Positions 1 through 14,725 of a DNA stretch of 57,809 bases are shown here, piece after piece (position 1 is the stretch's first letter; every line of letters starts with the position of its first letter). Made by a program: the position numbers and the translations under genes. The DNA comes from Legionella drancourtii LLAP12 (GTDB lineage Bacteria > Pseudomonadota > Gammaproteobacteria > Legionellales > Legionellaceae). The notes below the pieces were generated by a model, which worked only from the letters and a program-made list of their open reading frames with translations, was not told the origin of the DNA and did not search any database. The stretch is taken from NCBI RefSeq assembly GCF_000162755.2, contig NZ_JH413817.1, forward strand, positions 79,383 to 137,191, read 5' to 3'.

Positions 1-279
1 GACACTCATATAACTGCGCCTGATCGCGTGAATAAATTGATGGCTTTATTAGCGATTGCCTTCTGCTGGTGTCATAAAATGGGCGAATGGTGCCATGAAG
101 TAAAACCGATTCTTATCAAAACACATCGTAGGCTCGCTATTAGCTTATTCCGATATGGCTTGGATTTCATTGTTGATATCTTAATGAATTTATTCTACAA
201 AAAAACACTTTTTGGGGAATGCCTTAATAGAATTAGGTTAGAGAAGCCAGGTTCTACGCCTCTTGGTTATGCAGTATGA
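1..279 (+). pseudogene. IS4-like transposase, C-terminal fragment
   Basis: The reading frame is open from the first base of the window, so the gene enters from the left; a methionine at 28 is internal. The translation (DRVNKLMALLAIAFCWCHK, then HEVKPI and an SLFRYGLD stretch) resembles the C-terminal end of an IS4-type DDE transposase of the kind common in Legionella. The catalytic D/D/E positions are not in view. It is followed directly by remains of another IS, so I take it as part of a decayed element. The family call is from memory of the motif. Confidence 0.6.
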
Positions 280-731
280 AAAATTGTCGTGTACGAAGCA
301 AAAAAAGAGAAAGTAAAACATTATTTGGTGCTCTGAGCTTAAGTTCACAAGCTTTTTATTGGAAACAGGCTGAAAGAGGAAATTCCAAGATATTTATTCA
401 ATTTCTACATCAATTACATAAAGCTAAATAAACCCAACAAAAAGATAGTGATGATTATTGATAATGGTTCTATTCATCGCAGCAAAAAGGTTTCAAAATT
501 TGTAAAAAAACACGAGTGGGTGGAGTTATTTTTTTTACCGCCATACCACCTGAATATAATCCAATTGAGCTATTTTGGAAGTGGTTGAAGAGGAAAATAT
601 ATGGTGCGAATGGATTTACTTGTATTGAGCAATTGATTGGTCGTATTAGAAAATTTATCTGGCATTACAATGAAAATAAATTGCTTGACCCTATTCAATT
701 TGAGTTTAACGCATATCGGGAGTTGTTATAA
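280..731 (+). pseudogene. IS630-like transposase remnant with frameshifts
   Basis: Three pieces of one DDE transposase appear in different frames: FGALSLSSQAFYWKQAERGN (about 328-390), then IDNGSIHRSKKV (about 455-495), then PPEYNPIELFWKWLKRK (about 545-600) followed by a C-terminal WHYNE segment. The DNG and PEYNPIE motifs are typical of the IS630/Tc1-mariner catalytic core. One frame break lies near 420 and another just after the LPPY codons near 545, where one base appears to be missing. The 5' end of the gene is absent. It cannot encode a working transposase. Confidence 0.7.
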
Positions 732-963
732 ATGTTTTTGGATGGTTGCTTATTAAATAATATGACAAATATGGGCCATTTTCGTTTATCACAACAGAAT
801 CATAAAATCTTTCCTGAAGAGTGGTAATTTCAGTTTTAACTGCGAGGAGCAATCTATTAACATTTCGTTGATATTCTTTTCTTTTTGAATATTCCTGCAA
901 ACAATATGTAAAAATTACTGCAATTACAGCACCTATAAGACCAGACATAAGGTTATTCCACAT
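706..963 (-). CDS. small membrane-anchored protein, 3' end replaced by IS debris
   Basis: An 85-residue product starts with one hydrophobic segment (residues about 5-24, LMSGLIGAVIAVIFTYCL) followed by a charged, probably helical part (SKRKEYQRNVNRLLLAVKTE). The topology is an N-terminal membrane anchor with a cytoplasmic tail. The last codons overlap the end of the IS630-like remnant on the other strand, so the original 3' end has probably been lost to insertion. I do not recognise a family and cannot assign a function. Confidence 0.45.
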   Translation of the reverse strand: MWNNLMSGLIGAVIAVIFTYCLQEYSKRKEYQRNVNRLLLAVKTEITTLQERFYDSVVINENGPYLSYYLISNHPKTFITTPDMR

Positions 964-1074
964 TATTTTATCCTTAAATAAGTGCAGATGTATTTTAAGG
1001 ATAGATGATATCTTTGTTTTTCAGAATAACAATGATAATTCTATTCACATCTTTTCGTATTAGTTCAAATCAGC

Positions 1075-1152
1075 TATCATATGCCAAGTTGGGTAAGATT
1101 TTGGGTAAACTTCGAGTCCATATTATTTTAATAAAATATAATCAATGAGTTA
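1075..1152. repeat. 78-bp direct repeat, left copy
   Basis: This stretch matches 11059-11136 over its whole 78-bp length without gaps; I count 62 identical bases. Shared blocks include GAGATTTTG/AAGATTTTG, TTCGAGTCCATA and TATAATCAAT. The two copies lie in the same orientation outside the biosynthetic cluster and its decayed flanks. It sits in the gene-free stretch 964-1206, in which I see nothing else. Confidence 0.7.
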
Positions 1153-1206
1153 CAGCACAGGTAATCAGGCGAATTTTAACGGTTCTTTCCCATTTAAGGG
1201 GCCGCG

Positions 1207-1428
1207 TCAATCACCCGCAGAGCACCTTAACACGCCTCTATAATTTTCAAAATTCCTAAATCCATAAGCGCTTCTTTGTGTGAGTTTCATCTTTCGATGA
1301 AAGCCTTCAGTTATTCCATTTGATTTAGTAAATCGCCACATTCTAGCTACTTCATCTTTCCATGAGGTTAGTGTCTTACCTAGAGAAGCCAATGCTTTAA
1401 ATGGGCTTTGCTTTAAATCATTGAGCAT
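1207..1428 (-). pseudogene. ISL3-like transposase, C-terminal fragment
   Basis: The product begins MLNDLKQSPFKALASLGKTL and continues with WRFTKSNGITEGFHRKMK and YGFRNFENYR, which is the well-known C-terminal end of ISL3-family transposases. The N-terminal two thirds, with the catalytic centre, are missing, and the last residues (GVLRCSAGD) depart from the usual ending. It starts only 11 bases beyond the stop codon of the exporter gene. A second, shorter piece of the same transposase sits at 14876-14926 in the same orientation, 46 of 51 bases identical by my count. Confidence 0.75.
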
Positions 1429-1439
1429 TACAAATCACC

Positions 1440-2645
1440 TTAACTTTTTCTGAGCAACTTCACTGCTTTCCTATTGTTGGTAGTCAAGGAGTTACTTTGT
1501 TTGAGGGTTAGTGATAGGTAAATTCCTAAAATGAGTATGCAGTATATGATTGCTACACTATAAGAGTTAATCTGCCCTAAACCTGTTAACACCCCATAAT
1601 ATTGCCCAATACCTTCCCCTATTCCCATGCATAAGGCATTAATTGCGAAGATAGCAACTTTTTGATCCGGTAGTGTTTTTTGGCTTAAAATAACTTGAAA
1701 TCCGGGAATAAATGCAATTTCAGCTAATGAAATTAAGATAACCCCCCCAATTATCCCCAGTGGATTATTTAGATATATAAGTACAGAGAATCCTAGGATT
1801 GCGAAGATAAAACCAGAGGTTAGTTGAGCATAAATAGACATTCTTTTATGAAAAAAAACATTGATTTTGATTGAAAATAATACAGCGACAAGGCTATTGG
1901 AAAAGCCAATTACCCAAATATATGATTTTAGCCCATAAGTATTTGCCATCAATATGGGGGCTAAGGAAAAGATTTGAGCGTAGAAAAAATAGGCGATGAT
2001 GATGAGTGAATATACTTTTAAAAGTTCGTTGTGAGTTAATAACAATTTGATATTTTTAAAATAGCTTTCTTGTTTAGGGATGTTAGAATTTGATAAGCTC
2101 AAATAAGAATAAACTGAAGAGAAAACTAAAGTTAAGGCTGTTGCTTTCAAGGCGTACGTAATATTACTATATAGTGCTATCATATTAAATAATAAAGGCC
2201 CAAACATCGCTGCAATATTGGTTGCAACATGCAAAATGGCAAAGCGCTTATTTAGGGAAGCAGGGCTATTTATTTGATTAATGAGCACTCTAATTAACAT
2301 TGAATTGTTACCATAGCAGATGCTAATCAAAAAAATAGATATAAATACGTGAGGATCGCTATCTGTTATTAATAAATATCCTATAGCTCCTAATAATTGC
2401 AAACCGGAAACTAAAAGATTGACTCTAATTTTATCAATGAGGGGAGCAAGTAAAATTCTCGAAAAGCGAGATGCCCAGATCCCAAGTAGCATAACTAACC
2501 CTACCTCAACTTTACCTAGATGTTTAATGTCATATAAAAAAATAGCAATAAAAGATAAAGGAGCAAAATAACAAAGGCAATTTATTATCTCCAAGATAAA
2601 AAAGAGCCTCGCTTGGTTTTCATGACTGCCTGAAATCATTCTCAT
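1440..2645 (-). CDS. MFS-type exporter, last gene of the hydrazine cluster
   Basis: The 401-residue product is almost entirely hydrophobic, with about 12 predicted membrane segments, a short N-terminus and a basic C-terminal tail (NNRKAVKLLRKS). The RFAILHVATNIAAMFGPLLFN region, with charged loop followed by a glycine-rich helix, fits a major facilitator transporter. The start codon overlaps the stop of the ATP-grasp gene (ATGA), so the two are probably translationally coupled. As the terminal gene of a small-molecule cluster it most likely exports the product or provides self-resistance. Substrate is inferred from context only. Drug/peptide efflux is the best alternative description. Confidence 0.75.
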   Translation of the reverse strand: MRMISGSHENQARLFFILEIINCLCYFAPLSFIAIFLYDIKHLGKVEVGLVMLLGIWASRFSRILLAPLIDKIRVNLLVSGLQLLGAIGYLLITDSDPHVFISIFLISICYGNNSMLIRVLINQINSPASLNKRFAILHVATNIAAMFGPLLFNMIALYSNITYALKATALTLVFSSVYSYLSLSNSNIPKQESYFKNIKLLLTHNELLKVYSLIIIAYFFYAQIFSLAPILMANTYGLKSYIWVIGFSNSLVAVLFSIKINVFFHKRMSIYAQLTSGFIFAILGFSVLIYLNNPLGIIGGVILISLAEIAFIPGFQVILSQKTLPDQKVAIFAINALCMGIGEGIGQYYGVLTGLGQINSYSVAIIYCILILGIYLSLTLKQSNSLTTNNRKAVKLLRKS

Positions 2646-3886
2646 ACAGTTAACTCTGTAGTAATTGATGTGAGTAATTGTTCTAGTGATGCGAAATCAT
2701 GTTCTTCTGCTAAAATATAACCGAGTCTTTGCATAGCAAAGTCTTCGGGTGGCATTAGGATTTTTGTACCACGCGCTACAAGTTCTTCGATTTTTATTAG
2801 TCCAGGGGGAGTATCTGGTGTATCTTTATAATTCAGACCATAAAAAGGCTGTGAATCATGGGCTAAAATAAATTGAATACCTGAGTATTTTGGAATTGCT
2901 TTTTTGGGTATTAGAGGAAATTTTTTTTCTGTAAGAGATCTTATTACAAAGATCAACCAGTTAAAGTTTAGGCTATTCTCAATGAGATGAGTATGAATTA
3001 AATCGCCTCCAATGCGCGCCGCAATTTCAATTAGTTTGAATCCACTATCTGCCCATTTTCCTTCAAGATGAAAGGGGCAATTATTAATCCCTAGTGCGTG
3101 AATAACTTCTTTGCTAGCGTCTTCTATAGCAGTACAAACCTCTTTAGGATAATTGGCCGGAAAAATATGTCTGTATTCTAAATGCCAATCATCTGTTGTT
3201 AGCTTGTCGGTAATCCCGGCAATAAATATATCATTATTCAAAACAACCCCTTCAACACTGAATTCTTGCCCAGAAATAAAGGTTTCCAATATAAATTTAT
3301 TTCCATAGCGATTATAAAACCAACCCTCTTCGGTATCACCCAATAGCGTGGTTAAAGTTTTAAAAGCTTGGAAAGCCTCTTCAAGTGTATTGATTATAAA
3401 AATCCCTTTAGAGCCTGAAGCAGAGATAGGTTTTAAAACGGCTGGAAAACCAATATTAGAAATATTATTTTCTATATCTTTGAAGGAACTGACTTCAGCA
3501 AAAGAAGGCACTAAAGCTGGATTATGATTAAAAATAGTTTTGCGCATTTCATATTTATTGCGTGCTCGATAGGCAGCATCTGTATCTATAGAAGGGATAT
3601 TGATGGCTTTTGCAATTTTACTGCATAAAACAACATCAGTATCTGTCCAAGAAAAAACGGCGTCAATGGTATATTTGTTTGCTAGGTCTAAGGCATTTTG
3701 GATGGATTCAGCTTCATTTTTGTTATCATTATATTTATAAACAGCGGTTAAATCTTTTAGGTGTTCAGGAATGCTTGCTGCTAACATAATAACTTTATAG
3801 CCGCAGACTTTAACAGCATCATAAATAGCATGTTGCTCGTCTATAACGCTGCGGATATTGGTGAATAACAAATATTTATCAGTCAT
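2642..3886 (-). CDS. ATP-grasp ligase of the hydrazine cluster
   Basis: The 414-residue protein has the ATP-grasp layout: a pre-ATP-grasp domain (1-110), the lysine strand and glycine-rich loop GFPAVLKPISASGSKGI (about 147-163), an E-containing strand FILETFISGQEFSVEGV (about 198-214), and late metal-binding residues in FHLEGKWADSGFKLIEIAARIGG (about 272-294). This is the class that includes L-amino-acid ligases and carnosine-synthase-like enzymes, which join a carboxylate to an amine via an acyl phosphate. It overlaps its upstream neighbour by one base (TAATG) and its downstream one by four. I infer that it condenses the hydrazino acid, or its precursor, with another amino acid. Substrates are unknown. 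Confidence 0.8.
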   Translation of the reverse strand: MTDKYLLFTNIRSVIDEQHAIYDAVKVCGYKVIMLAASIPEHLKDLTAVYKYNDNKNEAESIQNALDLANKYTIDAVFSWTDTDVVLCSKIAKAINIPSIDTDAAYRARNKYEMRKTIFNHNPALVPSFAEVSSFKDIENNISNIGFPAVLKPISASGSKGIFIINTLEEAFQAFKTLTTLLGDTEEGWFYNRYGNKFILETFISGQEFSVEGVVLNNDIFIAGITDKLTTDDWHLEYRHIFPANYPKEVCTAIEDASKEVIHALGINNCPFHLEGKWADSGFKLIEIAARIGGDLIHTHLIENSLNFNWLIFVIRSLTEKKFPLIPKKAIPKYSGIQFILAHDSQPFYGLNYKDTPDTPPGLIKIEELVARGTKILMPPEDFAMQRLGYILAEEHDFASLEQLLTSITTELTV

Positions 3887-5499
3887 TATTTTTCCTCGTT
3901 CAGAGTCAGTATCTGGGATAGTTGGTGTATTAAGTTGAAAGGGTTTAATTTTTTTCCGTAGTTCAAGTCAAAATTTTTGCGATAATCAAAATTATCTAAG
4001 TTCAGATGATTGTCAAGAAAAATATTTGCAAACCACAACAACCACTGAATAGCATAAATGTATAGAGTAAGTGCGGTACGATGATGTCGTTTATTTATTT
4101 GGGCATCTATCTGTTTCAGATAGGTGAAGTATTCTGATATCTCAAACATGAGTTTTTTTCTAATAAGGCAAAGTTCAATGGCATTAAAGTTGTCTATATT
4201 TGCAAAATAAAAAAATCGCTTAATGGCCATTTGTACATCTTGAATAAATAAAATATCCTTATTTATCCATTGTCCTGGCTCGGGAACAATAAAAGAGTAA
4301 GCTTGTAGCTGTTCGTTTAACTGATGCAAATGAGTTAGCAAAAAGCTAAATTCTTTATTATCAACAAAAACATTCCTAAAAGGATATGGTGTATCTAACC
4401 TGACTTTGAACAGAGAGGAACTTGGCTGGTAGTGCAATACAATTTTTTGAAAAATTATGGCGTAAACATAAAACTGTGATAATCCTATAAATATGACCCC
4501 TTTGTTTTCTTCTGATTTTTCGTTGTAAAAAAGTGCTGCAGTAAAACAGTGATATATTTCTGGAATGATTTTTAAGGGCCCTTGATGCGGTAGTAGCCCC
4601 ATGCTAATGTTAATTGATTGTCCTGATTGGGCGAAACAAGTCAGAGGGAAATCTAGAGTATCATTGTTATACTTATGAAGTAGGATACGTTCTTTGGAGC
4701 TGTAATCGTCAGCTTGAGTATATAATAATTCGATTTGTTTTAGGAAAGATTTATCAATTTCTAAATATAAAATATGAAGAGGTCGCGTTGTTAAAAATGA
4801 GCCAGTCGTTTTATTTCGTGGCTCCAACAATTGAAATTCTCTATGAAAGTGGCCACAAAAATGGCAAGCAATGGTTTGAATAAGGGCATCGCATTCTTGG
4901 CATTTTCCACTCAATTCCTCAAGAATAATAAATTTTTGTGTTTGTTCGTCATAAGGGTAGCTGATTTCTTTGCTAAAGATTTGACCGTGCTGTTTAAGCT
5001 CCAAAAGGAGCTTATTAATATCGTAATTTCTGGGATTGGAAATGGCGTAATTAACAAAAGGGATTGTTAGTGCTTTGGAAAGAGCTAGAAATAATTGGCT
5101 GATTTCTCCAGGTTTTTCATCATGCATAACAACCAAAGGGGGGGTATGAGATGGCACTATTTGCTTCGCATTAAAATGAAATATATCCTCATTTATTTTG
5201 AGCCAATCAGCATACCAAAAAGCAACAAACGATAGCTCACTATTTCCTATATTTAAAATGCTGTGGTGCTCAAAAGATTCTAGGAATATCAGATCCCCGG
5301 TTACAACAGTTTGTGTGTAACTTCCTGATTTAATAATTCCGGTTCCAGATTTAATAAACCAAATCTCTTGTTCATGATGATTTTGTGTATCTGTTTCTTG
5401 AGCAACAGTAAGGCTGAGATCAGATGAGAAAAATGGTACGGCAATGCTAGCGACAAAAAGATGGGCTTCTTCTAAAGTATAGTTGTTAAGAATTTTCAT
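3886..5499 (-). CDS. cupin protein with degenerate MetRS-like second half (putative hydrazine synthetase subunit)
   Basis: A 537-residue protein with two parts. Residues about 30-95 form a cupin: HHEQEIWFIKSGTG (41-54; likely metal ligands among H41, H42 and E45) and GDLIFLESFEHHSILNIG (68-85; H78/H79). From about residue 130 to the end it is collinear with the MetRS-like protein at 7840-9378: ISYPY (180) with ESYPF, a C-x2-C-x8-C-x2-C zinc knuckle at C200/C203/C212/C215 with identical spacing, FLKQI (252-256) with LTKQI, SGQ with TGQ, then exactly 91 residues on, VDNKEFS (379-385) with LDGEKFS. The HIGH segment is missing and the KMSKS loop is lost. In known hydrazine synthetases (Spb40 family) a cupin is fused to an active MetRS-like domain and makes the N-N bond; a role here beside the intact synthetase is inferred. 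It overlaps both neighbours by one base. Confidence 0.75.
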   Translation of the reverse strand: MKILNNYTLEEAHLFVASIAVPFFSSDLSLTVAQETDTQNHHEQEIWFIKSGTGIIKSGSYTQTVVTGDLIFLESFEHHSILNIGNSELSFVAFWYADWLKINEDIFHFNAKQIVPSHTPPLVVMHDEKPGEISQLFLALSKALTIPFVNYAISNPRNYDINKLLLELKQHGQIFSKEISYPYDEQTQKFIILEELSGKCQECDALIQTIACHFCGHFHREFQLLEPRNKTTGSFLTTRPLHILYLEIDKSFLKQIELLYTQADDYSSKERILLHKYNNDTLDFPLTCFAQSGQSINISMGLLPHQGPLKIIPEIYHCFTAALFYNEKSEENKGVIFIGLSQFYVYAIIFQKIVLHYQPSSSLFKVRLDTPYPFRNVFVDNKEFSFLLTHLHQLNEQLQAYSFIVPEPGQWINKDILFIQDVQMAIKRFFYFANIDNFNAIELCLIRKKLMFEISEYFTYLKQIDAQINKRHHRTALTLYIYAIQWLLWFANIFLDNHLNLDNFDYRKNFDLNYGKKLNPFNLIHQLSQILTLNEEK

Positions 5500-6566
5500 T
5501 ATGAACCTAATCCAATTAATTCCATGGCTTTCTGAGCAATGCCATAACTTAGTCTATATCCAGATCCTGATGCGCCAGAAATATTCACAATATTAGGAGC
5601 TATTTTTTGAATATTAACCTCTCTGTTTTTTGAATAAGAGTCGCAAAATACTCTCCCTCCAGAAAATAAGGCCGTAAAATCTAAGCCGTATTGCTCTAAT
5701 ATATGAGTACCCAAGCTCAGTTCATCTTTGGATATAGTGTGACTTTGTTGAGGATTGTCTACCATTTCCTGAGAGTTGAGGCTAAATAGCCATTGATAGC
5801 TATAAGGTAAAGGAAGGAGAAAAGAGTCGTCATCATGCATCATAATGACAGAATTATGCTCAGTTGGTTTTTGATTTAAATGAAAAGCAATTATTTTTTT
5901 AACAAAAGAGGGGGCGGCTTTCATTTCTTCAGAAAAATTGGTTTTTATTTTATAAGTCAACCAAGGGCCTGTTGCTATCACTAGCTGGGTCGCTTTAATC
6001 AGTAAACCATGAGTACATTTTATATGGCAGAAACCATCTTGCGCTTCAATTTCTTCTACTAACGATGCCTCGTAAATACTAACCTGCTGATCCTTTAAAA
6101 AATAACTTATGCGAGCAATGAGTTGTGTTATTGATGCATAGTGAACATCATTATTGCTCATAAAGCATTGTTTATCACGAGGAATTGTTAGTTTGTCTAA
6201 AGATAAATTTTTGATTTTGGATGGGGAAATTTCCTCCAAAGTATTTCCCAGATAATTTTCTTTAAAATTTAATACATTTTCTTCATTAATTAGATGTAAG
6301 CATGGTGTAAAAGTTAATCCTAAATTTAGGTGTTTGGATAGATCGGAAATAACGTTTTTACTGCGCTTAATTAATTCTGCAGTAAAGATTCCTTTCGATA
6401 TGGGAGCACTTAAGCCAGCAGAATAAAGACTTGCCCCCGTTGCCAGGCTCGATTGCTCAATAATGGCGATATGTAAATGAGGACAGGTTATTTTTGATAC
6501 TAAAGCAGTCATCAGTCCAATAATGCCACCCCCAATAATTGCAAGATCGTATTGTTTTCTAATCAT
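5499..6566 (-). CDS. FAD-dependent amine/amino-acid oxidase (DAO family), putative hydrazine-cleaving oxidase
   Basis: The 355-residue product starts with the dinucleotide-binding motif DLAIIGGGIIGLMTAL and then EQSSLATGASLYSAG, the usual second FAD contact of the DAO/glycine-oxidase family. ATGPWL (about 198) and the C-terminal SGASGSGYRLSYGIAQ match the family ending. Length is normal. In s56-p1, triacsin and pyrazomycin pathways a homologous flavoprotein oxidatively cleaves the lysine-amino acid hydrazine adduct to release hydrazinoacetic acid; I infer the same job here from the gene set. The start codon overlaps the stop of the hydroxylase (ATGA). A simple sarcosine/glycine oxidase role is the alternative. 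Confidence 0.8.
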   Translation of the reverse strand: MIRKQYDLAIIGGGIIGLMTALVSKITCPHLHIAIIEQSSLATGASLYSAGLSAPISKGIFTAELIKRSKNVISDLSKHLNLGLTFTPCLHLINEENVLNFKENYLGNTLEEISPSKIKNLSLDKLTIPRDKQCFMSNNDVHYASITQLIARISYFLKDQQVSIYEASLVEEIEAQDGFCHIKCTHGLLIKATQLVIATGPWLTYKIKTNFSEEMKAAPSFVKKIIAFHLNQKPTEHNSVIMMHDDDSFLLPLPYSYQWLFSLNSQEMVDNPQQSHTISKDELSLGTHILEQYGLDFTALFSGGRVFCDSYSKNREVNIQKIAPNIVNISGASGSGYRLSYGIAQKAMELIGLGS

Positions 6567-7827
6567 TTAGAGCCCCAATTAACTAAACTTGTTCCATCAA
6601 TCTGTGAATACAGAGGGTAGCCAGCAATATCATTCGCAATTACAGCACTACGATAAGCAAGGAGACTTAAATTAGGATCTGCTATACCATGGGAATGACG
6701 AGCACCATTTTGAATATATATGCTACAAGTATCCATACCATCCCATGAGAGTTTATAATTTTCATCAATCAGCATGTTGTTTTCGCTATCAAAATGAATT
6801 TTTTCTTTGAGCGAATTTAAAAAAGATGGGAGTATATGGGTATAGCCAGTACAAAAAATAACAATATCGGAGGTGATCTTTTTTAAAAGGCCTGTTTCTC
6901 TATCAATTACCTCTAACTGGTATTTATTATCATATGACATCTTAGTTAATTTATGGCTTGGCAGTAAGGTTATTAGCCTATTTTTTTATAAATAAATTCT
7001 AGTTCATATAATTTTTGATAAATATTATCAATAGTATGATTTGAAATCCCATCACTAGCTAAACGCTGTTTTTCTAAGAGGGATGATTTGAGATGCGGTG
7101 GTAATTGATAAAAATATTTGATGTATGAGGGAAGAAATAATTCATTTGCAAATGCGGAGTCATCAATCGCATCAAAATTTTGCTCTTTGGATATCCAATA
7201 TATTTTTAATGGAAGTCCATTAGTTTTAGATAAAGAGTCAAGCAAAATTTCTGCCCCACTTTGACCTCCTCCTATAATTGTAACTTTCTTATTGCTCAGA
7301 TCGGTTTTTTTATGAAGATATTCTGCACTATGAAAAACTTCATCATTCACAAAATCTTTACAATAATCTGGAATATAAGGCACTAATCCACTTCCAAGTA
7401 CTAATTTCTTTGTTTGATAGGTTTCTTTTGTTGTTGTGATAGCAAGTTCGTCTTGGATTAGAGAAATATCTAGAATTGTCTCATCTTCACGTACTGATCT
7501 AAGGTCGTTAAATACCCATTCTAAATATTGGGAAAATTCCAAACGGCTGGTTTCTTTAAAATCTGCCGTTATAAATTGATAAAGTTTTCCTGACTGATGA
7601 AGATAATTAATAAAGGAATATTTGTTAGTCGGATCCACAAGCGTTACTAAATCTTTAAGATAAGATACTTGTAATTTAGTACCTGGTATAAGCATTCCTG
7701 GGTGCCAATGGTATTTTATCTTTTTATCGCAAAAATATGCTTTAATATCTGGGGTTTTCTCTAACAAAGCAGCCAAACTTAAATTGGCGGGGCCGGCGCC
7801 AACACCAAATACATCACAGTACATCAT
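6563..7827 (-). CDS. lysine N6-hydroxylase (IucD/SidA family), interrupted by a -1 frameshift
   Basis: Two adjacent frames form one enzyme. The first (7827-6973, 284 aa) has the FAD motif FGVGAGPANLSLAALL, WHPGMLIPGTKLQ and YLKDLVTLVDPTN, and the NADPH motif VTIIGGGQSGAE. The second (in frame from about 7000 to 6563) has FCTGYTHILPSFL and QNGARHSHGIADPNLSLL, the family's C-terminal signature. One extra base in the A7 run at 6981-6987 would join them as YKKNRLITLLPSHKL and give about 421 residues, normal for lysine N6-hydroxylases. It makes N6-hydroxylysine, the nucleophile for N-N bond formation in hydrazine synthesis or a hydroxamate precursor in siderophores; no siderophore synthetase is present here. 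It may be a mutation, a sequencing error, or slippage-dependent expression. The start at 7827 has an AAGGATG ribosome site. Confidence 0.85.
6981..6987 (-). other. A7 homopolymer at the hydroxylase frame break (possible slippery site)
   Basis: On the coding strand the codons read TAT AAA AAA ATA GGC TAA, so the zero frame stops right after the run. A one-base backward slip on the seven A residues gives TAT AAA AAA AAT AGG CTA, which continues into the conserved C-terminal part of the enzyme. A-AAA-AAA is a classic sequence for -1 ribosomal frameshifting and for transcriptional slippage, and also a classic place for indel mutation or base-call error. Confidence 0.7.
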
Positions 7828-7839
7828 GACAACATCCTT

Positions 7840-9378
7840 TTATTTTAAATGCTCAATAGAAATTAGCGGAATTGATATATCTAAAGGAAGATATCCTTCT
7901 GCCTGAAGAGATTCGTTAGGGTTTGGAAATCCATGAAAACCTAATCCCGACCATATTTTTCCCGATAACTCTGGCATCACAGGATAAAAGAGAACAGCAA
8001 AACACTTTAGCCAAAGTGTATGAGCTACCGAATCTTTGGGGTCCTGAGCGAGGAATAAAGTGAGATTATGATATATCTGCGTAGCTGAGTAATTTTCAGG
8101 CATGGTGATAGCATAGGATTGTTCAATTAACTCGTCATAGCGTGCTTTAATTTGCAGGGAATTTAAACCTGATCTAACCTTAATTGCCTGATTACCCAAT
8201 ACCTTTGTTAATCGTGTTGCCACTTGATTATGAAAGTTAATAAACTCATTCGTTTTAAAGTCATTGAAGATGTTATCTACGTTGATCTTTAATAAATAGA
8301 ATCGAAGAATATCGATTGAAACTTCATTTGCTAAGCTGTCTACCCATATAGCATGCTTTCTGCTCGTAGAGAATTTTTCACCATCTAAGGTTAAAAAATA
8401 GCTGGGAAGGTAATGAGTAAGACCTGGAGATTTGATGGTTATAGCATAGTTAAGTGTATTAATCATAAATGACATAATATTATCAAAACCAAAACTTGCA
8501 ACGGTTTCTACGTAACCTGGTTTATCAGTATGGAGTTCATCCAAAGGGTTTTTTTCTAATTGATGTTGCTCTTTGAATTTTTCACCAAGAGTATATAAAT
8601 AGTGAAAAAAATTACCATAAGTATAAAATACCGAATTTTTCTGCCCTGTTTCTACCCCCCAGGAAATTGGAATAGACAGTCTTGATGTATCTGTTTGTGA
8701 GCAGAGCGTGGCAACTTTGTCTAAAAGTACTTTGGAATTTGTTTTAGAAGATATTTGTTTTGTTAGCTCATGTGTTTGTATTGGTAAAAACATCGAGTGA
8801 ATTTTTTTAAGCTCAATCATATTATCGCTTGTTTTGCAGGATAAATTTTTTGCTTGTTCTGGTTTAAAATATAAGCCGCAATGTTCACAAATAAAGCTAT
8901 GAATTTTTTGTTCACAATTAGGACAATTCCCGGTAATAAAACTAGGAGGTAAAAAACCTCTTTCTTTAGTGAAAGGGTATGATTCTTGTTCAGATATAGT
9001 GAAAGGAATAATGCGATCATGTATTTTTTTAGCTATCTTAGAGAAGAGCTCTTTTTCATGAAGGGGATTTACAAAGTCATCTAGAGCAATGTTCATTTTT
9101 AGAAGATCTTGTTTAATACATTGATGATAATATTCGCAAATTTCCTCAGGCTTCTTATTTTCATCGAGCGCTTTTAGTAATACATAACTATCATAACTAT
9201 CTGTTCCACCATAAATATAGGCTTTATTTCCAATTTGTTGGTTATATCGTTTTATGACGTCAAGTTTGAGATAGGGGCCGCCTATATGTCCTAAATGAAG
9301 TCTGCCATTGGGGGTGGGAAAGACCAGATAGAGGAGGAGCGTTCGATTAATATTTGTTGATTTTCCTTTTTTTGACAT
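7840..9378 (-). CDS. methionyl-tRNA-synthetase-like enzyme of a hydrazine synthetase
   Basis: A 512-residue class I aminoacyl-tRNA synthetase homologue: YLVFPTPNGRLHLGHIGGPY (17-36) carries the HIGH-type motif HLGH (28-31), C152/C155/C164/C167 form the MetRS zinc knuckle, and LDGEKFSTSR (331-340) is the KMSKS loop. It lacks the C-terminal tRNA-binding domain of many MetRS proteins. Embedded between a LuxR regulator and a lysine hydroxylase, it is unlikely to be the housekeeping MetG. In Spb40/Tri28/PyrN-type hydrazine synthetases such a domain activates an amino acid with ATP and esterifies it to N6-hydroxylysine before rearrangement by the cupin; I infer this role. A strong AAGGAG ribosome site precedes the ATG, and the stop lies 12 bases before the hydroxylase. 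Confidence 0.85.
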   Translation of the reverse strand: MSKKGKSTNINRTLLLYLVFPTPNGRLHLGHIGGPYLKLDVIKRYNQQIGNKAYIYGGTDSYDSYVLLKALDENKKPEEICEYYHQCIKQDLLKMNIALDDFVNPLHEKELFSKIAKKIHDRIIPFTISEQESYPFTKERGFLPPSFITGNCPNCEQKIHSFICEHCGLYFKPEQAKNLSCKTSDNMIELKKIHSMFLPIQTHELTKQISSKTNSKVLLDKVATLCSQTDTSRLSIPISWGVETGQKNSVFYTYGNFFHYLYTLGEKFKEQHQLEKNPLDELHTDKPGYVETVASFGFDNIMSFMINTLNYAITIKSPGLTHYLPSYFLTLDGEKFSTSRKHAIWVDSLANEVSIDILRFYLLKINVDNIFNDFKTNEFINFHNQVATRLTKVLGNQAIKVRSGLNSLQIKARYDELIEQSYAITMPENYSATQIYHNLTLFLAQDPKDSVAHTLWLKCFAVLFYPVMPELSGKIWSGLGFHGFPNPNESLQAEGYLPLDISIPLISIEHLK

Positions 9379-9421
9379 TGGTTGGTACTCCTTAATTCCA
9401 TTTCAAAAATGATGGAGAACA

Positions 9422-10153
9422 TTAATTATCTTTTAATTCAACAGACAATTGCGTTCTAAATATACTTTCGGGGACTGTATTTAAAAAACCATAAGAAATG
9501 GCTACATCAATTAATTCATGCTTATTTTGCGCATTAAATTTATACCTTAATTGCTCCATATATTCATGAACGGTTCTAGCAGAGATATTAAGATATTGGC
9601 CTATCTGTTTAGCAGTTTTTCCTCTTAGCAAATAAAAAAGCACTTCTGATTGGCGGTCAGTTAATTTAATGTCATTAAAGCTTTGACTCAGCATATAGCT
9701 GTCTTGCCCAATGAGATTGTTATTAACTCCTTCGATTTTTGTTCTTGCAAGTAAAGAACCTATTTCTAGAGAGGCTGCATTGGTAATGTCTGCCCCATGA
9801 AAAATAGTACCAATACATTGATCACCGTCCATGAGTGGGGTTTTTGTGAATATATATGCCTTCCAAATCTGTCCGGCAAATGGATGTATATCTAGAATTC
9901 GCATTTTTTGTAATGAGTGGATAACTCTTTTATCCTGTTCTCTGAACATAGACGCAGCATTGATGGTATCACAAGGCATATCAAAGTCAGTTCGACCGAT
10001 AATATCTTCTTTATGGTTTAATCCTATGATATCAACGTAATCTTGATTAGCATGCATGAATACAGAATCCAGATCCTTGCAACCGCAGACACCTGGCATT
10101 TGATCAAAAAAAGATTTCATGTGGTCGCTAATCATTTGAACTTCCATTTTCAC
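9422..10153 (-). CDS. PAS-LuxR transcriptional regulator of the cluster
   Basis: The 243-residue product has an N-terminal PAS domain (about 15-130; GVCGCKDLDSVFMHANQDY, then GRTDFDMP and FHGADIT) and a C-terminal LuxR/GerE helix-turn-helix (about 160-220; LTDRQSEVLFYLLRGKTAKQ, then YLNISARTVHEYMEQLRYKF). PAS-LuxR proteins of this layout are numerous in Legionella. It is the first gene of the minus-strand cluster, 43 bases ahead of the MetRS-like gene, so it is probably the pathway regulator. The ligand is unknown; a PAS domain may sense the product or the redox state. A 21-bp palindrome lies about 57 bases upstream. Confidence 0.85.
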   Translation of the reverse strand: MKMEVQMISDHMKSFFDQMPGVCGCKDLDSVFMHANQDYVDIIGLNHKEDIIGRTDFDMPCDTINAASMFREQDKRVIHSLQKMRILDIHPFAGQIWKAYIFTKTPLMDGDQCIGTIFHGADITNAASLEIGSLLARTKIEGVNNNLIGQDSYMLSQSFNDIKLTDRQSEVLFYLLRGKTAKQIGQYLNISARTVHEYMEQLRYKFNAQNKHELIDVAISYGFLNTVPESIFRTQLSVELKDN

Positions 10154-10209
10154 ATAGGTTGAATTTAATAATATCCTGGCGTCATTATAACGATAAATTA
10201 TTTTTTCTC

Positions 10210-10230
10210 TACCCGTAACAGTTACGGGTA
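10210..10230. promoter_or_regulatory. perfect palindrome, candidate LuxR operator
   Basis: TACCCGTAA and TTACGGGTA (9-bp arms, 3-base centre CAG) form a perfect dyad between the regulator (start 10153) and the divergent gene fragment at 10250. There is no T-run on either side in the direction of transcription, so a terminator is unlikely. Size and position fit a dimeric HTH regulator's binding site for autoregulation of the cluster. Which protein binds is inference. Confidence 0.5.
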
Positions 10231-10249
10231 ATGGATGGGTTTTAAAATT

Positions 10250-10324
10250 ATGAATGCAACATTAATAAAATTGGAAGGAGTGGATACTCCGTGTCTGTTG
10301 ATTGATTTAGATAAACTAAAGTAA
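10250..10324 (+). pseudogene. N-terminal stub of a DSD1/D-threonine-aldolase-like protein
   Basis: A 24-codon frame encodes MNATLIKLEGVDTPCLLIDL and then DKLK before a stop. The pattern E/G-V/L-D-T-P-x-L-L-I-D-L-D-K-L is the conserved start of alanine-racemase-fold PLP enzymes of the D-threonine aldolase / D-serine dehydratase (DSD1) group. The rest of the gene is absent; transposase debris follows at once. It is divergent from the LuxR gene and may once have belonged to the pathway. Confidence 0.5.
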
Positions 10325-10338
10325 AATATATATGTGAA

Positions 10339-10645
10339 TCAAAAGTCGGCTAGTGGATAGGCTCTTAGCAACATAGCGGTGGCAAATTTACCAAAGATAT
10401 GGGAGAAGAGTAAGCCCGCAGATGATCGAACAAGCCCGGCAATTTTTCGCGCTATCTTAGCGGTGTAAGCATGGTTATGCTGAGCCAGCATAATAGGAAA
10501 CGAGTCCATTAAATACAGATCATCATCCTCTTCCGTGACTTGGGTTGCTTGTAAATTGGCAATGAGCTGACGAAAAGCGTCATGCAATCGGTTAACTCGA
10601 TGAACAAACGCAGCATATAGCGGAAGGGACGGGAACCAAGATTTT
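10339..10645 (-). pseudogene. DDE transposase remnant
   Basis: The frame extends upstream of its first methionine (SLPLYAAFVHRVNRLHDAFR) and continues with LYLMDSFPIMLAQHNHAYTA, a segment seen in IS4/IS982-like transposases around the first catalytic Asp (MDSFP). After about residue 55 the sequence loses resemblance and stops. No terminal repeats were identified. The exact IS family is uncertain. Confidence 0.55.
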
Positions 10646-10766
10646 AAATGATCAGACTTTTAATGTTTTTAAATCCTCTTAAGACTCCAAATAAAAATGG
10701 TTCTCGAACTATTTGCTAACACAGTAAAATAGAGTTTAAAGTAATAATGTATTTGTTGGAATTTGT

Positions 10767-10980
10767 ATGGATAATAATCAATCTATTCATGTAATTGATT
10801 GGCGTAGAGATGAATAATTTGCTCAATATCCTGAAGGAGCTCGTGATAAATCTTTATTATATTGTCCTGTTCACTTATAAAAAAGCTATAGAAAAAGGAA
10901 TAATTTAAAAAGCTCACTATGACATACCGGACGTATTACAAATGGAAACGATTTTTACAGTTAAGAAATTAGAATTATAA
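10767..10980 (+). pseudogene. decayed orphan gene fragment
   Basis: A frame beginning MDNNQSIHVIDWRRDE meets a stop at 10815-10817, then continues in the same frame as FAQYPEGARDKSLLYCPVHL before another stop. The sequence between stops reads like real protein, so this is a coding remnant with in-frame stops. I recall similar DWRRDE...YPEGARDK starts in Legionella proteins but cannot name the family. Downstream, to about 10980, only scattered open pieces remain. Confidence 0.4.
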
Positions 10981-11058
10981 ATTTAATCTACAAGCTATAG
11001 ATAATTTAAATCAAGTCTCTTTAATATTTCCCATCTTTTCGCAACGCTTCGATTCTGT

Positions 11059-11136
11059 TATCATACCCTAATTTGGGCGAGATTTTGAGTAAGATTCGAG
11101 TCCATACTATTTTAGTTTTATATAATCAATAAGCTA
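11059..11136. repeat. 78-bp direct repeat, right copy
   Basis: Same length and orientation as 1075-1152, about 79% identical by my count. Together the two copies enclose roughly 10 kb holding the biosynthetic cluster and its debris. They may be att-like scars, copies of a dispersed Legionella intergenic repeat, or ends of a lost element. Confidence 0.7.
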
Positions 11137-11143
11137 TATCAAT

Positions 11144-11166
11144 GTTCGATTCCGGCCCTAGCACCA
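11144..11166 (+). other. tRNA 3'-end-like segment (possible att scar)
   Basis: GTTCGATTCCGGCC followed by CTAGCACCA looks like the T-loop, 3' T-stem, acceptor strand and CCA of a tRNA gene. The 5' half of the T-stem does not pair and there is no cloverleaf upstream, so it is not a functional tRNA. Integrases often use tRNA 3' ends, and this lies immediately beside the right repeat. It could be chance. Confidence 0.3.
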
Positions 11167-11224
11167 ATTACACATTGAATTAAAACTACATAATGAGCAT
11201 CATTGTCCTTTAACAAGGTGTAAC

Positions 11225-11818
11225 ATGCCCAAAAATATTAATCAAAAGCAGTATTCAAAAAATGCTGATAATTCAATGACTAAATATCAATTCACCTTTA
11301 AATTGACTAGGCCATCAGCAAATTTAGAGAATGATCCCTCCGTGATGAAGAACCAATTTCACTTGGAATTTGATAAAACTACCAGGACGCTAGGCGATGC
11401 TGAGCCAGTGTATAAACCACGGAAGAAACGTTTGCCTCCCCTTGCCCCTTCAGAAACTAATGCGCCTAACAAGATAAAGAATATTTATATCACCACCCTT
11501 TATCACCCTTACTCATCTGCATCTGGAACTCCTTCTGGGCTCTATACAAACGCAAGCTCGCCAACATTCTTTAAGGCTGCGCAAAATAGGGATCATATTC
11601 CTTCTACACATAACCTTGATGCATCTGTAATTATGCCCACAAAAGCTGCTCTAATTCCAAGTATTAAGGCTGAAAAAATAAAAATTTCTAATTTGATTAA
11701 TGCTGAAATGATTGATGAGAAAAAATTAGACATCTCAACAATCAATATCTTAGCTAAAACATTTAATGTATCTGCTGAAAACCTGGAAACGGAATTATCC
11801 ACTGCAATACGCTGGTAA
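11225..11818 (+). CDS. orphan 197-aa protein, possible effector
   Basis: A polar, basic and proline-rich N-terminal half (KPRKKRLPPLAPSETNAPNK near residues 60-80) lacking a signal peptide or membrane segment is followed by a more ordered C-terminal third (IKISNLINAEMIDEKKLDIS, TFNVSAENLETELSTAIRW) that looks helical. The acidic residues close to the C-terminus are compatible with a Dot/Icm translocation signal, but weakly so. The gene has its own upstream AAGGTG ribosome site and sits at the edge of the mobile region. No family recognised. Confidence 0.5.
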   Translation: MPKNINQKQYSKNADNSMTKYQFTFKLTRPSANLENDPSVMKNQFHLEFDKTTRTLGDAEPVYKPRKKRLPPLAPSETNAPNKIKNIYITTLYHPYSSASGTPSGLYTNASSPTFFKAAQNRDHIPSTHNLDASVIMPTKAALIPSIKAEKIKISNLINAEMIDEKKLDISTINILAKTFNVSAENLETELSTAIRW

Positions 11819-11915
11819 ACAAACTCAGTCGTGCGAGATCTATGGGGGCAGACTCTCAACGATCTCGTCATAATTTTGTACAATCATATTTTGTTCAGGT
11901 ACATAACGCGTTCTC

Positions 11916-12050
11916 TTATTTCTTATGTAACTGCTTACGCCAGCTATATAGCTTGTTTTTAGCAACTCCTGTCTTACTGACTTATGGCCTTGCTCAATGA
12001 GCTCTATTGCTTTTATTTTAAATTCTTGTGTAGTTGTTGTTGCTCATCAT
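11916..12050 (-). pseudogene. IS3-type OrfA remnant
   Basis: In two frames one can read TTTQEFKIKAIELIEQGHKS and then GVAKNKLYSWRKQLHKK followed by a stop: the helix-turn-helix start of an IS3-family OrfA. A frame break lies between the two pieces, and OrfB is absent. The remaining sequence from 11819 to 12274 holds no other feature I can support. Confidence 0.6.
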
Positions 12051-12274
12051 AACTCCTCGCTACTGGAAACAATGTGTCTTGGAAATCGAGGGAAGATCAT
12101 CTGGAGCCAGCGACCGATAGCCTTGTTTTTTCTATAGTGAAATCAGGTAAATTTAAGATAAGATTATATCTAGGCACTTCAATCTCCTTTTGATCGCTAA
12201 ATCAATGATTTAGTTTAGACTAATTTGATTAAAGTGCCGCCTCATTTGGTGTAGAGCCAAAAGTAACCTAATAC

Positions 12275-13939
12275 CTATCTACATTGTGGAAATTTAAAGG
12301 CAACAATACGAGTACTCCAGTTTGGTTGAGGACCTGTGACTGGCGTATATTGGGTTGTATACCAAAATGTGCAGTCGTCTACCGGATCAATCGCCATACT
12401 GCTGTAATCACCCCAACGATTTCTGTCTAAACTTCCAATAAGTTGAGATCCTGCACCATAGACAACAGTGTTTTCTACACGCATCATGTTAAGAGGATCT
12501 GTCACTAGTCTTCCGGTATAACGTATGGATGGAAACATTCCAATACCTGAAATGCTATAACCCATAGCGATATCTCCGCGTTTGTCCATGGCAATACTAC
12601 CCATCCAACGACTGATATTATTATCACTAGGCTGCATATAAGTACCTTGCTGGAAGATAGCTGGAGTTCCCTGGTTATTCACCCGAATTTCATACCAACG
12701 CGTCCCTGAAGCCTGATTACCTACCTGAACATTATGATTTACCACCATGGATTGATAGCGACCAAAATTACGGTAAGCCAAGCGATACAACATTCGGTCT
12801 GATAGGACTTCAAGCTTATCATTTGTGCCAGGTTGGGGAATGCAATCTGCATTTGGATCATTACATACAATAGGATTAAAGGGCTGGACTGCAAGTGCAG
12901 TTGGTCCATTAAAACTGCTGTTTGCAGGCGTTTGCCAATCCACATGAAATTTCCAAAGGGCAATACTGTTTGGAAACGTATTACCTTGAGCATCCTGGTT
13001 AAGACCAACAAAATAGTTCGGAGATCCTGCGGGGGGCAACGTCTGTCCATCCAAATTAGAGGGAAGGAAATTACCTGCAGCTGGAACTGGTTGGAAGCAT
13101 TGCATCGGTCTTGCGGACAATCCTTGCAACATATTTGTTCGGTCAAGAGCACATGCTGCTGGACCACCTGCCGTCGGAATTGCGCCTACAAGATCTGGTG
13201 CACCACTAGGGAACATGACAAAACTCATGTAATAAGCATCAGGCCAAATACCAAGCTTACCGTAATCATTAAAATTAGTACCAAAATCAAACGCATAGCG
13301 ATTGTAGGTACCGGTTGCATCAGAAGTGGTAGAAACGGCCACGCATTGCATAAACGGCGCTGTGGTTACTGCAAATTGGGTCATTACCCAGCGATTAGCT
13401 ATTTGATCATAGACTACAATAGGATCACCGTCATTATCTGCCTCACAAGGTCCTCCAAATCCTTGCCATAAAGAATTTCCAGGGAACGGACCTGCGATTA
13501 GTTGCCCTGTTTGTTTATTAAAAACAGCAAAATTAACATTAACCCATTCAACTATCTGGGTTAAACCTACCGCGGCATTGGGATCTGGGGGACTAAACGC
13601 GGGTGAGAACCCCGGGAAACCTACTCCTAAACCCAAAAAATTCAGCATAGTAGTTGTTTCAAGCGGAAGGCCTGATAATTTTTGCAATGCTTTATCTTCT
13701 CCAAAGCGATATGGGGTTTTCAATTTGGGCGGCGCTGTAAACAAAGGTATTTCTCTAGCAACAGATGGAACATTAGACGTAACTAATGCCATTTCTCTTA
13801 AGGGCAGAGAAAGATCATGCATTACTTCGGGAATTTCTATAACGTTCATATTTGACTTGTCTGAGGCAAATACATCGCCCCACAATACTCCTCCAACAAG
13901 GTTAAACATGAGTCCAACAGTAACATTAAGTTGTTTCAC
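12275..13939 (-). CDS. large secreted protein of unknown function
   Basis: A 554-residue protein with an N-terminal hydrophobic signal (VTVGLMFNLVGGVLWGDVFA) and no further membrane segments. The body is rich in aromatic, Gly, Asn and Asp residues and contains repeated blade-like phrases such as DGDPIVVYDQIANRWVMTQF, GKLGIWPDAYYMSF, SRWMGSIAMDKRGDIAMGYS and WGDYSSMAIDPVDDCTFWYT, which suggests a beta-propeller-like exported protein. Several cysteines may form disulfides. It is 29 bases downstream of a beta-barrel protein gene on the same strand, so the two are probably co-transcribed. Proteins with these phrases occur in many bacteria without assigned function. Confidence 0.65.
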   Translation of the reverse strand: MKQLNVTVGLMFNLVGGVLWGDVFASDKSNMNVIEIPEVMHDLSLPLREMALVTSNVPSVAREIPLFTAPPKLKTPYRFGEDKALQKLSGLPLETTTMLNFLGLGVGFPGFSPAFSPPDPNAAVGLTQIVEWVNVNFAVFNKQTGQLIAGPFPGNSLWQGFGGPCEADNDGDPIVVYDQIANRWVMTQFAVTTAPFMQCVAVSTTSDATGTYNRYAFDFGTNFNDYGKLGIWPDAYYMSFVMFPSGAPDLVGAIPTAGGPAACALDRTNMLQGLSARPMQCFQPVPAAGNFLPSNLDGQTLPPAGSPNYFVGLNQDAQGNTFPNSIALWKFHVDWQTPANSSFNGPTALAVQPFNPIVCNDPNADCIPQPGTNDKLEVLSDRMLYRLAYRNFGRYQSMVVNHNVQVGNQASGTRWYEIRVNNQGTPAIFQQGTYMQPSDNNISRWMGSIAMDKRGDIAMGYSISGIGMFPSIRYTGRLVTDPLNMMRVENTVVYGAGSQLIGSLDRNRWGDYSSMAIDPVDDCTFWYTTQYTPVTGPQPNWSTRIVAFKFPQCR

Positions 13940-13968
13940 TATTTTTTACTCCTTGTAAAAAATCAATA

Positions 13969-14697
13969 CTATTTCTCATAACCCTTTGGTGCTGCGTTAG
14001 GAAATGTGTATCGGACACCAATTGAACCCATGTTATAATGTTGATTACTGATAGGAGTAGAGTCAAACTGACTGATCCCCTTCCAGGCAAGGCTTATTGA
14101 AATATTTGGGTTATATTGATATTGAACTCCAGTGCCATAAGTTAATGCAGCACTTGAATTATCTTGGTTGTACGAGCCGGGATTGAAAAAAATAGCACCT
14201 TGTGGATCATTTACAGATAAAGATGAAAATAATGCTGCAACTCCTACTTTAGCAAAAATATTTAATTGGTAATTATTAAGAGGAAGATATCCTACCAAAT
14301 TGCCACCAACAGATTGTGCATCAAGATGCCCCTTCATTCCGCCTGTCGCCGTTGTTATTTGCCCTGTAAACGTGCTTAAGCTCTGTTGTCCCCAATAAGT
14401 ATAATTTGCTTCAAGACCCAGATAAGAAGTAAAGCTATATCCTAAATCAGCATAAGCACCAACTTGCCCTCGAGTATTTAACCCATACACATCGGTCACA
14501 CCACCTGTTAATGTTCCGCCACTGTCTACAAATCCGGTAGCAGGAGCTACTACATAAGAAGGGCCATTGCTTGCTCCTATGCCCACTTCAGCATATGGAC
14601 CTTTTTGTATCGCGAATGCGAAACAAGGTAACATTAAAAGAGCTGTAACACAGCATTTACTACTAAAAGCCATTAAAAAATACTCCTTATTTTTCAA
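13969..14697 (-). CDS. outer-membrane beta-barrel protein
   Basis: 242 residues with a signal peptide ending CFAFA, then alternating-residue strands typical of an eight-stranded OmpA/OmpW-like barrel: GPYAEVGIGASNG, GAYADLGYSFTSYLGLEANY, NIFAKVGVAALF, SISLAWKGISQF and the last strand MGSIGVRYTF. An additional short tail (NAAPKGYEK) follows the last strand, unlike the usual terminal aromatic residue. First gene of a probable two-gene unit with the secreted protein at 12275-13939. Function beyond a surface barrel is not evident. Confidence 0.7.
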   Translation of the reverse strand: MKNKEYFLMAFSSKCCVTALLMLPCFAFAIQKGPYAEVGIGASNGPSYVVAPATGFVDSGGTLTGGVTDVYGLNTRGQVGAYADLGYSFTSYLGLEANYTYWGQQSLSTFTGQITTATGGMKGHLDAQSVGGNLVGYLPLNNYQLNIFAKVGVAALFSSLSVNDPQGAIFFNPGSYNQDNSSAALTYGTGVQYQYNPNISISLAWKGISQFDSTPISNQHYNMGSIGVRYTFPNAAPKGYEK

Positions 14698-14725
14698 AAT
14701 ATTAGGCCAAGAAAATCTTGGTTGA

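What the first reader, a model, noticed from the sequence alone, without database searches (positions are those of the whole stretch)
3886..9378. Split hydrazine synthetase with a cupin-pseudo-MetRS subunit beside an intact MetRS-like subunit
Known hydrazine synthetases are one cupin-MetRS fusion. Here an intact MetRS-like protein (HLGH, KFSTSR) stands alone, and the cupin protein carries its own second half that aligns without large gaps to residues about 85-480 of the first: same C-x2-C-x8-C-x2-C knuckle, FLKQI/LTKQI, SGQ/TGQ, and exactly 91 residues on, NKEFS/GEKFS. The HIGH segment is gone and the KMSKS loop is dead. This looks like duplication of a fused ancestor followed by loss of the cupin from one copy and of catalysis from the other, giving a catalytic/pseudo heterodimer. 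I know of no described system with this arrangement.
Basis: partly seen in the sequence, partly recalled or inferred. Interest (0 to 1): 0.95.

Follow-up and report, generated by a model that had tools for sequence, protein, structure and literature searches.

The report
Hydrazine synthetase with a dead half
A Legionella gene cluster for making nitrogen-nitrogen bonds carries its rearrangement enzyme on a protein whose second half looks like a disabled tRNA-synthetase-like enzyme, beside an intact separate one; separate partners are already known, the disabled half appears to be new.

Summary
P0001 (3886-5499, -) is a cupin followed by a degenerate MetRS-like half: zinc knuckle kept, HIGH segment gone, KMSKS loop altered, about 53 residues missing behind it. 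P0002 (7840-9378, -) is an intact MetRS-like protein (HLGH, KFSTS); 9l8v, the PyrN MetRS-like domain, ties for its best sequence match among solved structures. The premise is wrong: split cupin/MetRS sets were described in 2010 and assayed in 2021, and 15 of 143 held Legionellaceae genomes carry one. What I found nowhere else is the pseudo-MetRS on the cupin chain. Duplication of one fused ancestor is not supported: P0001 and P0002 as sisters is rejected (p-AU 0.005); P0002 falls with split-type proteins, while P0001's C-terminal part and the gene order NMO-DAO-cupin::MetRS resemble fused-type synthetases. Best reading: a fused-type synthetase lost its own adenylation and serves, if at all, as cupin subunit to a split-type MetRS-like enzyme. 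Doubts: P0001 is one sequence on a very long branch, the N-hydroxylase frame beside it is broken, and one cupin metal ligand is Gln. A new variant of a known kind.

The parts
9422..10153 (-). P0008, PAS + LuxR-type HTH regulator, 43 bases upstream of P0002
   Evidence: Pfam PAS_4 E 9.7e-15, GerE E 9.2e-15
7840..9378 (-). P0002, intact standalone MetRS-like protein, 512 aa, split-type
   Evidence: tRNA-synt_1g E 1.3e-44; best PDB chains 9vq4 and 9l8v, each E 1.2e-29, 9l8v titled PyrN C-terminal domain; tree
9286..9297 (-). HIGH motif of P0002 (HLGH, residues 28-31)
   Evidence: invariant columns
8362..8376 (-). KMSKS-type loop of P0002 (KFSTS, residues 335-339)
   Evidence: invariant columns
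6973..7827 (-). P0005, N-terminal piece of a lysine/ornithine N-hydroxylase-type monooxygenase (NMO)
   Evidence: Lys_Orn_oxgnase E 2.5e-91
6563..6940 (-). P0004, C-terminal piece of the same NMO in another frame; the gene is broken in this window
   Evidence: TIGR04439 positions 311-430, P0005 covers 1-284; one open frame in 15 of 15 Legionella split loci
5499..6566 (-). P0003, FAD-dependent oxidoreductase of the DAO family (Spb39/Tri27-like role inferred)
   Evidence: DAO E 1e-15; nearest rows are DAOs of fused loci, on a very long branch, only one split row in the set
3886..5499 (-). P0001, cupin followed by pseudo-MetRS, 537 aa
5176..5499 (-). cupin part of P0001 (residues 1-108): H41, E45, H79 kept, Gln39 at the first metal position
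   Evidence: best PDB sequence hit 5uqp (RHS1), E 2.2e-8; fold hits 4rd7 then 5uqp
4855..4902 (-). zinc-knuckle cysteines C200-C215 of the pseudo-MetRS
   Evidence: invariant columns; in the confident part of both models
4345..4359 (-). NKEFS (381-385), altered KMSKS column
   Evidence: alignments; alignment A4 placed this column differently
4018..4347 (-). helical C-terminal part (385-494) with PEPGQW (406-411) and RT (474-475), fused-type signature
2642..3886 (-). P0006, ATP-grasp ligase
   Evidence: ATP-grasp_4 E 1.4e-20; amino-acid ligase models DdaF and BacD match below their cut-offs; a relative beside the B. arboris MetRS-like gene
1440..2645 (-). P0007, MFS transporter
   Evidence: MFS_1 E 1.7e-22

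Best explanation
A hydrazine-forming biosynthetic operon (MetRS-like, NMO, DAO, cupin, ATP-grasp ligase, MFS) of a Legionella species. P0002 would adenylate an amino acid and pass it to the hydroxyl of an N-hydroxylated diamino acid; the cupin of P0001 would rearrange that ester into an N-N bond; the DAO would cleave the conjugate to a hydrazino acid, the ATP-grasp enzyme would ligate it, and the MFS protein would export it. P0001 looks like a former fused-type cupin-MetRS hydrazine synthetase whose MetRS half lost adenylation while a split-type MetRS-like protein took that step over. The kept zinc-knuckle and helical parts most likely serve as a scaffold, docking P0002 or stabilising the cupin. 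Shown: homologies, motif losses, gene order, and that P0001 and P0002 are not sisters. Inferred: every reaction, the docking role, and descent from a fused enzyme. Unknown: whether the pathway runs here, since the NMO frame is broken.
For: Homology and motifs. P0002 is closest in the PDB to the PyrN MetRS-like domain and P0001's cupin to RHS1/5uqp, both parts of proven hydrazine-forming systems (PMC8664883, passages). A fused-type HMM (10 rows) scores P0001's half 50.0 bits over two colinear stretches, split-type (13 rows) 42.8 over one, housekeeping (13 of 45 rows, random) 21.7; the C-terminal part alone scores 21.3, -2.3 and -1.3. With an earlier 8-row fused HMM the C-terminal part scores 16.5 bits, the best of 2000 shuffles 4.0. 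PxxGxW plus RT in 9 of 10 fused rows, 0 of 13 split, 0 of 7 housekeeping. Gene order NMO-DAO-cupin::MetRS in 8 of 12 fused loci (7 by annotation; one by BLAST), as in the window. The NMO N-terminal piece groups weakly (87/70) with six fused-type NMOs, outside the starred 15-row Legionella NMO clade. P0002 in a starred split-type clade; sisterhood rejected. PyrN's two halves, cut apart or each mutated, work in trans. 429 codons without a stop; 2000 base shuffles give 29 on average, at least 16. Coding overlaps of 1-4 bases from the NMO piece to the MFS gene. No other cupin or MetRS-like frame in the window.
Against: P0001 is a single sequence on an extreme branch (5.99). Grouping it within eight fused rows (p 0.115), with housekeeping MetRS (p 0.224) or with the nine-row split clade (p 0.105) is not rejected; the best tree puts it beside three other split rows, 94/93 unstarred. 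The knuckle region alone is closest, sequence to sequence, to housekeeping MetRS (36.5 bits against 24.4 split and 21.2 fused), and hhalign agrees. Cupin HMMs do not tell fused (51.7 bits) from split (46.4 to 55.6). The PxxGxW/RT signature was picked after seeing the alignment; L145, a fused row, lacks it. Both structure models are poor outside cupin and knuckle (mean pLDDT 50.9 and 49.8) and were built on MetRS-like rows, so the PyrN fold hit is not independent. NMO broken. Gln39 stands where 30 of 30 cupin relatives have H, D or E.
Confidence: 0.5

Rival explanations
1. A decaying locus. The operon was once an ordinary hydrazine synthetase set; the NMO frame is lost, the cupin has lost a metal ligand, and P0001's second half is simply eroding.
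For: NMO in two frames while 15 of 15 Legionella split loci have it in one frame; Gln39; very long branches of P0001 and the DAO; no relative of P0001 found.
Against: 429 codons without a stop at 18-22% identity to fused relatives; genes still overlap by 1-4 bases; knuckle cysteines, H41, E45, H79, PxxGxW and RT kept. In PyrN, H50A, the position of Gln39, leaves about 82% activity, though D63A kills RHS1. The NMO break could also be a sequencing error or a phase switch.
Confidence: 0.22
2. The second half comes from a housekeeping MetRS, or another MetRS paralogue, joined to a standalone cupin, not from a fused synthetase.
For: Best single-sequence matches of residues 150-262 are housekeeping MetRS; hhalign E 2.3e-7 to housekeeping against 8.7e-6 split and 1.6e-5 fused; grouping with housekeeping not rejected, p 0.224.
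Against: Whole-half HMM scores favour fused (50.0) and split (42.8) over housekeeping (21.7); the C-terminal part matches only fused; cupin-first order in the chain and NMO-DAO-cupin::MetRS gene order.
Confidence: 0.13
3. One reading: a fused ancestor was duplicated; one copy lost the cupin, the other lost catalysis.
For: Neighbouring MetRS-like and cupin-pseudo-MetRS genes; equal spacing of 183 residues from knuckle to KMSKS column; P0001 with the nine-row split clade not rejected, p 0.105.
Against: P0001+P0002 as sisters rejected, p 0.0046; P0001 with P0002 and six Legionella split rows rejected, p 0.007; the other eight members of P0002's clade are split-type with small separate cupins; P0002 lacks the fused motif that P0001 has.
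Confidence: 0.1

Closest known systems
Fused cupin-MetRS hydrazine synthetases (PyrN, Spb40, Tri28)
   Same: N-terminal cupin, C-terminal MetRS relative; NMO and DAO next door, the hydrazinoacetic-acid gene set (PMC11705231, passages)
   Different: P0001's MetRS half lacks HIGH, has an altered KMSKS loop and about 53 residues fewer behind it; a second, complete MetRS-like protein is present
Split MetRS-like + small cupin hydrazine synthetases (R. jostii RHS1 set, PMC8664883; gene pairs such as Dpn5-Dpn6 and Bac1-Bac2, and Afn8/Afn9, PMC11705231)
   Same: Separate complete MetRS-like protein, cupin encoded nearby, NMO
   Different: The split cupins fetched here are 109-146 aa ORFs; the window's cupin protein is 537 aa with a pseudo-MetRS
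Legionella split sets (15 of 143 held Legionellaceae genomes); PMC2922099 already lists L. pneumophila among carriers of the MetRS paralogue
   Same: MetRS-like (31-33% identical to P0002), NMO (46-50% to P0005), cupin
   Different: Small cupin, no DAO or ATP-grasp relative in the 13-14 kb fetched (BLAST E 1e-3 and 1e-5), NMO in one frame
Burkholderia arboris plasmid locus L002 and Deinococcus ficus locus L195
   Same: NMO, MetRS-like, cupin, FAD oxidoreductase and ATP-grasp genes together
   Different: Small standalone cupins (116 and 123 aa)

Membership tests
MetRS/cupin hydrazine synthetase system | MetRS-like protein with HIGH and KMSKS-type motifs, nearest to hydrazine synthetase MetRS domains | tested here: met
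   P0002: HLGH, KFSTS; tree; PDB 9vq4/9l8v E 1.2e-29
MetRS/cupin hydrazine synthetase system | cupin with four metal ligands including the invariant Glu | tested here: inconclusive
   H41, E45, H79 kept; Gln39 where 30 of 30 relatives have H, D or E
MetRS/cupin hydrazine synthetase system | N-hydroxylating monooxygenase encoded beside it | tested here: inconclusive
   present by sequence but in two frames
MetRS/cupin hydrazine synthetase system | ATP-dependent N-N bond formation | not testable with these tools
   needs an assay
Fused cupin-MetRS hydrazine synthetase (P0001) | cupin N-terminal to a MetRS-like domain in one chain | tested here: met
Fused cupin-MetRS hydrazine synthetase (P0001) | catalytic MetRS-like domain with HIGH and KMSKS | tested here: not met
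   no HIGH; NKEFS at the KMSKS column; so P0001 is not filed as a working fused synthetase
Methionyl-tRNA synthetase (housekeeping) | score above the curated cut-off of MetRS models | tested here: not met
   P0001 27.6 bits against 587 (NF001100); P0002 330.8 against 551 (NF008863)

The most novel reading that the evidence does not exclude
A two-chain hydrazine synthetase in which the cupin rides on a catalytically dead MetRS that docks a live MetRS-like partner from another subfamily and holds the unstable ester next to the cupin: a pseudo-synthetase kept as a channelling scaffold in N-N bond formation.
Probability: 0.3. Interest if true: 0.65.

Novelty: new variant of a known kind. Interest (0 to 1): 0.42.

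Why it matters
If the pseudo-half is a kept scaffold, it would show how an N-N bond enzyme can lose its own adenylation step and still use its shell to work with a partner, and would point to a docking surface between MetRS-like and cupin proteins, which in PyrN are known to work even when cut apart. It also shows that hydrazine-type gene sets in Legionella come in split (15 of 143 genomes), fused (2 of 143) and, in this window, mixed forms; the products are unknown to me and no paper in the held library has both 'hydrazine synthetase' and 'Legionella'.

Tried and rejected
Searches for relatives of P0001 that gave none. Legionellaceae: 28 of 143 genomes matched at E 0.001 or better, 16 in the cupin range only, 12 in the MetRS range only (repeated at E 1e-6 as 'order', the tally again 143 genomes); of the 16, 14 are small cupins, one is the fused enzyme of G008, one (L110) another protein. 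Class sample: 4 of 369, MetRS range only. Phylum sample: 0 of 398. Plasmids: none of 72,556 records at 1e-5. Viral contigs: none. These negatives are weak: the samples are small and share genomes, and a fused synthetase query found 0 of 398 in the phylum sample too. Genome contigs was scanned with P0002 (no relative confirmed) and with GlnE, to name the genus, not with P0001.

A fused-synthetase query in the class sample listed 315 of 369 genomes; the 30 best were fetched as loci and every one that one search used was counted as housekeeping-type on a BLAST match to housekeeping rows; I did not check each for a paralogue. Cupin HMMs could not place the cupin. The DAO tree has a single split row and very long branches. 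MAFFT alignments disagreed on the KMSKS column of P0001 (A4, against A1, A6 and the L-INS-i alignment); I followed the latter because the spacing fits. An earlier view of mine, in the notebook, that NKEFS is not the KMSKS column, was dropped for that reason. Promoter and terminator scan: 28 promoter-like sites against 40.8 expected, 10 terminator-like sites against 5.2, not used.

Rows dropped: tree and motif counts used 13 of 22 split, 10 of 12 fused (L154, L191 left out) and 7 housekeeping rows; L190 (match in three pieces) was dropped throughout the trees. The measuring script stopped with an error at the second housekeeping row, after 24 rows were printed; P0001's numbers come.

Full report
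Where it is. The window is a Legionella chromosome stretch: the GlnE gene at 46249-48981 matches Legionella species first, up to 79% identity (L. saoudiensis, L. rowbothamii), and no genome is held for it. Seven - strand genes form one block: PAS-LuxR regulator, MetRS-like P0002, an N-hydroxylase-type monooxygenase in two frames (P0005, P0004), DAO-type oxidase P0003, cupin-pseudo-MetRS P0001, ATP-grasp P0006, MFS P0007. From the second NMO piece to the MFS gene neighbours overlap by 4, 1, 1 and 4 bases.

The cupin protein's second half is a MetRS relative by Pfam (E 5.2e-7), by pairwise BLASTP to P0002 (E 6e-8) and by an HMM of 29 MetRS-like rows (E 7e-12). The four knuckle cysteines are kept, HIGH is absent, and the KMSKS column reads NKEFS. 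The distance from first knuckle cysteine to KMSKS column is 183 residues in both proteins. Behind the loop P0001 has 23 residues where nine fused synthetases have 75 or 76 before a shared PxxGxW motif.

The premise does not hold. PMC2922099 (2010, passages seen) describes the MetRS paralogue either fused to a cupin or beside a standalone cupin gene, always with a lysine N6-monooxygenase, and lists Legionella pneumophila. PMC8664883 (2021, passages seen) assayed fused and standalone forms and showed that PyrN's halves work in trans. PMC11705231 (2024 review, passages seen) lists gene pairs. In my searches 17 of 143 held Legionellaceae genomes had a strong P0002 match: 15 with MetRS-like, NMO and small cupin genes, two with fused cupin-MetRS frames.

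Two origins. P0002 falls in a starred clade with six Legionella, one Robbsia and one B. arboris split-type rows. P0001 does not pair with it: sisterhood is rejected (p-AU 0.0046), as is membership of the group P0002 plus Legionella (p 0.007). Where P0001 does belong is less sure: within the fused rows (p 0.115), with the nine-row split clade (p 0.105) and with housekeeping MetRS (p 0.224) all stay possible, and its branch is 5.99 changes per column. Pointing to fused-type synthetases: the best whole-half HMM score (50.0 bits against 42.8 split and 21.7 housekeeping), a C-terminal part that only the fused HMM recognises (21.3 bits against -2.3 and -1.3), the PxxGxW and RT motifs (9 of 10 fused, 0 of 13 split, 0 of 7 housekeeping), the gene order NMO-DAO-cupin::MetRS in 8 of 12 fused loci, and a weak grouping of the NMO N-terminal piece with fused-type NMOs (87/70). 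Pointing elsewhere: the knuckle region is nearest to housekeeping MetRS sequence by sequence.

Can it work? The cupin keeps H41, E45 and H79; its first metal position is Gln39, where 10 of 10 fused and 20 of 20 split cupins have H, D or E. In PyrN the alanine mutant at that position keeps about 82% activity, in RHS1 it is dead (PMC8664883), so the change is not decisive. The NMO frame is broken in this window, while the 15 Legionella split sets have it in one frame. Against plain decay, the pseudo-half has 429 codons without a stop (base shuffles: mean 29, minimum 16) at 18-22% identity to fused relatives.

Structure. Two AlphaFold2 models, built from the window and whole-genome rows that the tool admits, are confident only for the cupin and the knuckle part (mean pLDDT 50.9; 49.8). 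Foldseek puts the cupin next to 4rd7 and 5uqp (RHS1), and the second half next to 9l8v, the PyrN C-terminal domain (E 6.8e-9), just ahead of E. coli MetRS (E 2.7e-8). As the alignment held MetRS-like rows, this is support, not an independent proof.

Mechanism. By analogy with PyrN and the hydrazinoacetic-acid gene set (Spb38-Spb39-Spb40), P0002 would make the aminoacyl adenylate and the ester with an N-hydroxylated lysine or ornithine, P0001's cupin the N-N bond, the DAO the cleavage to a hydrazino acid, and the ATP-grasp and MFS proteins ligation and export. All of these steps are inferred. The pseudo-half most likely acts as scaffold or docking part; nothing here tests that.

Novelty. The held literature was searched with eight term sets; in the listings and passages seen I found no cupin carrying a degenerate MetRS. 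Most subscription papers are not held, among them the 2024 family survey cited by the review, so this is not proof of absence. I rate it a new variant of a known kind.

Noticed in passing
L110, frame of 434 aa (unnamed Legionellaceae genome G026, contig C68, about 60.4 kb): A protein whose C-terminal part matches the split-cupin HMM (39.1 bits, residues 332-399) behind an N-terminal part that by eye looks like a heme-oxygenase-like diiron domain: possibly an oxygenase-cupin protein of the kind recalled from SznF, another N-N bond enzyme.
   Followed up: no
L004 (Rhizobium phaseoli plasmid pRphaN161b): A split set (SidA-type monooxygenase, phytanoyl-CoA dioxygenase, cupin, class I tRNA ligase) lies between nodA and nodD2 on a plasmid from root-nodule rhizobia.
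   Followed up: no
plasmid collection: 187 of the 311 plasmid records that match P0002 are Escherichia; Klebsiella rows are annotated as class I tRNA ligase beside a KamA-family radical SAM protein. What these MetRS relatives do was not looked at.
   Followed up: no
window 1-12000: G+C is 0.335-0.354 here against 0.369-0.420 in 12001-32000, which would fit an acquired island.
   Followed up: no
window 6930-7000: The NMO reading frame is broken between P0005 and P0004; cause unknown (sequencing error, phase switch or real loss); unbroken copies exist in other Legionella genomes.
   Followed up: partly
   Followed up: partly
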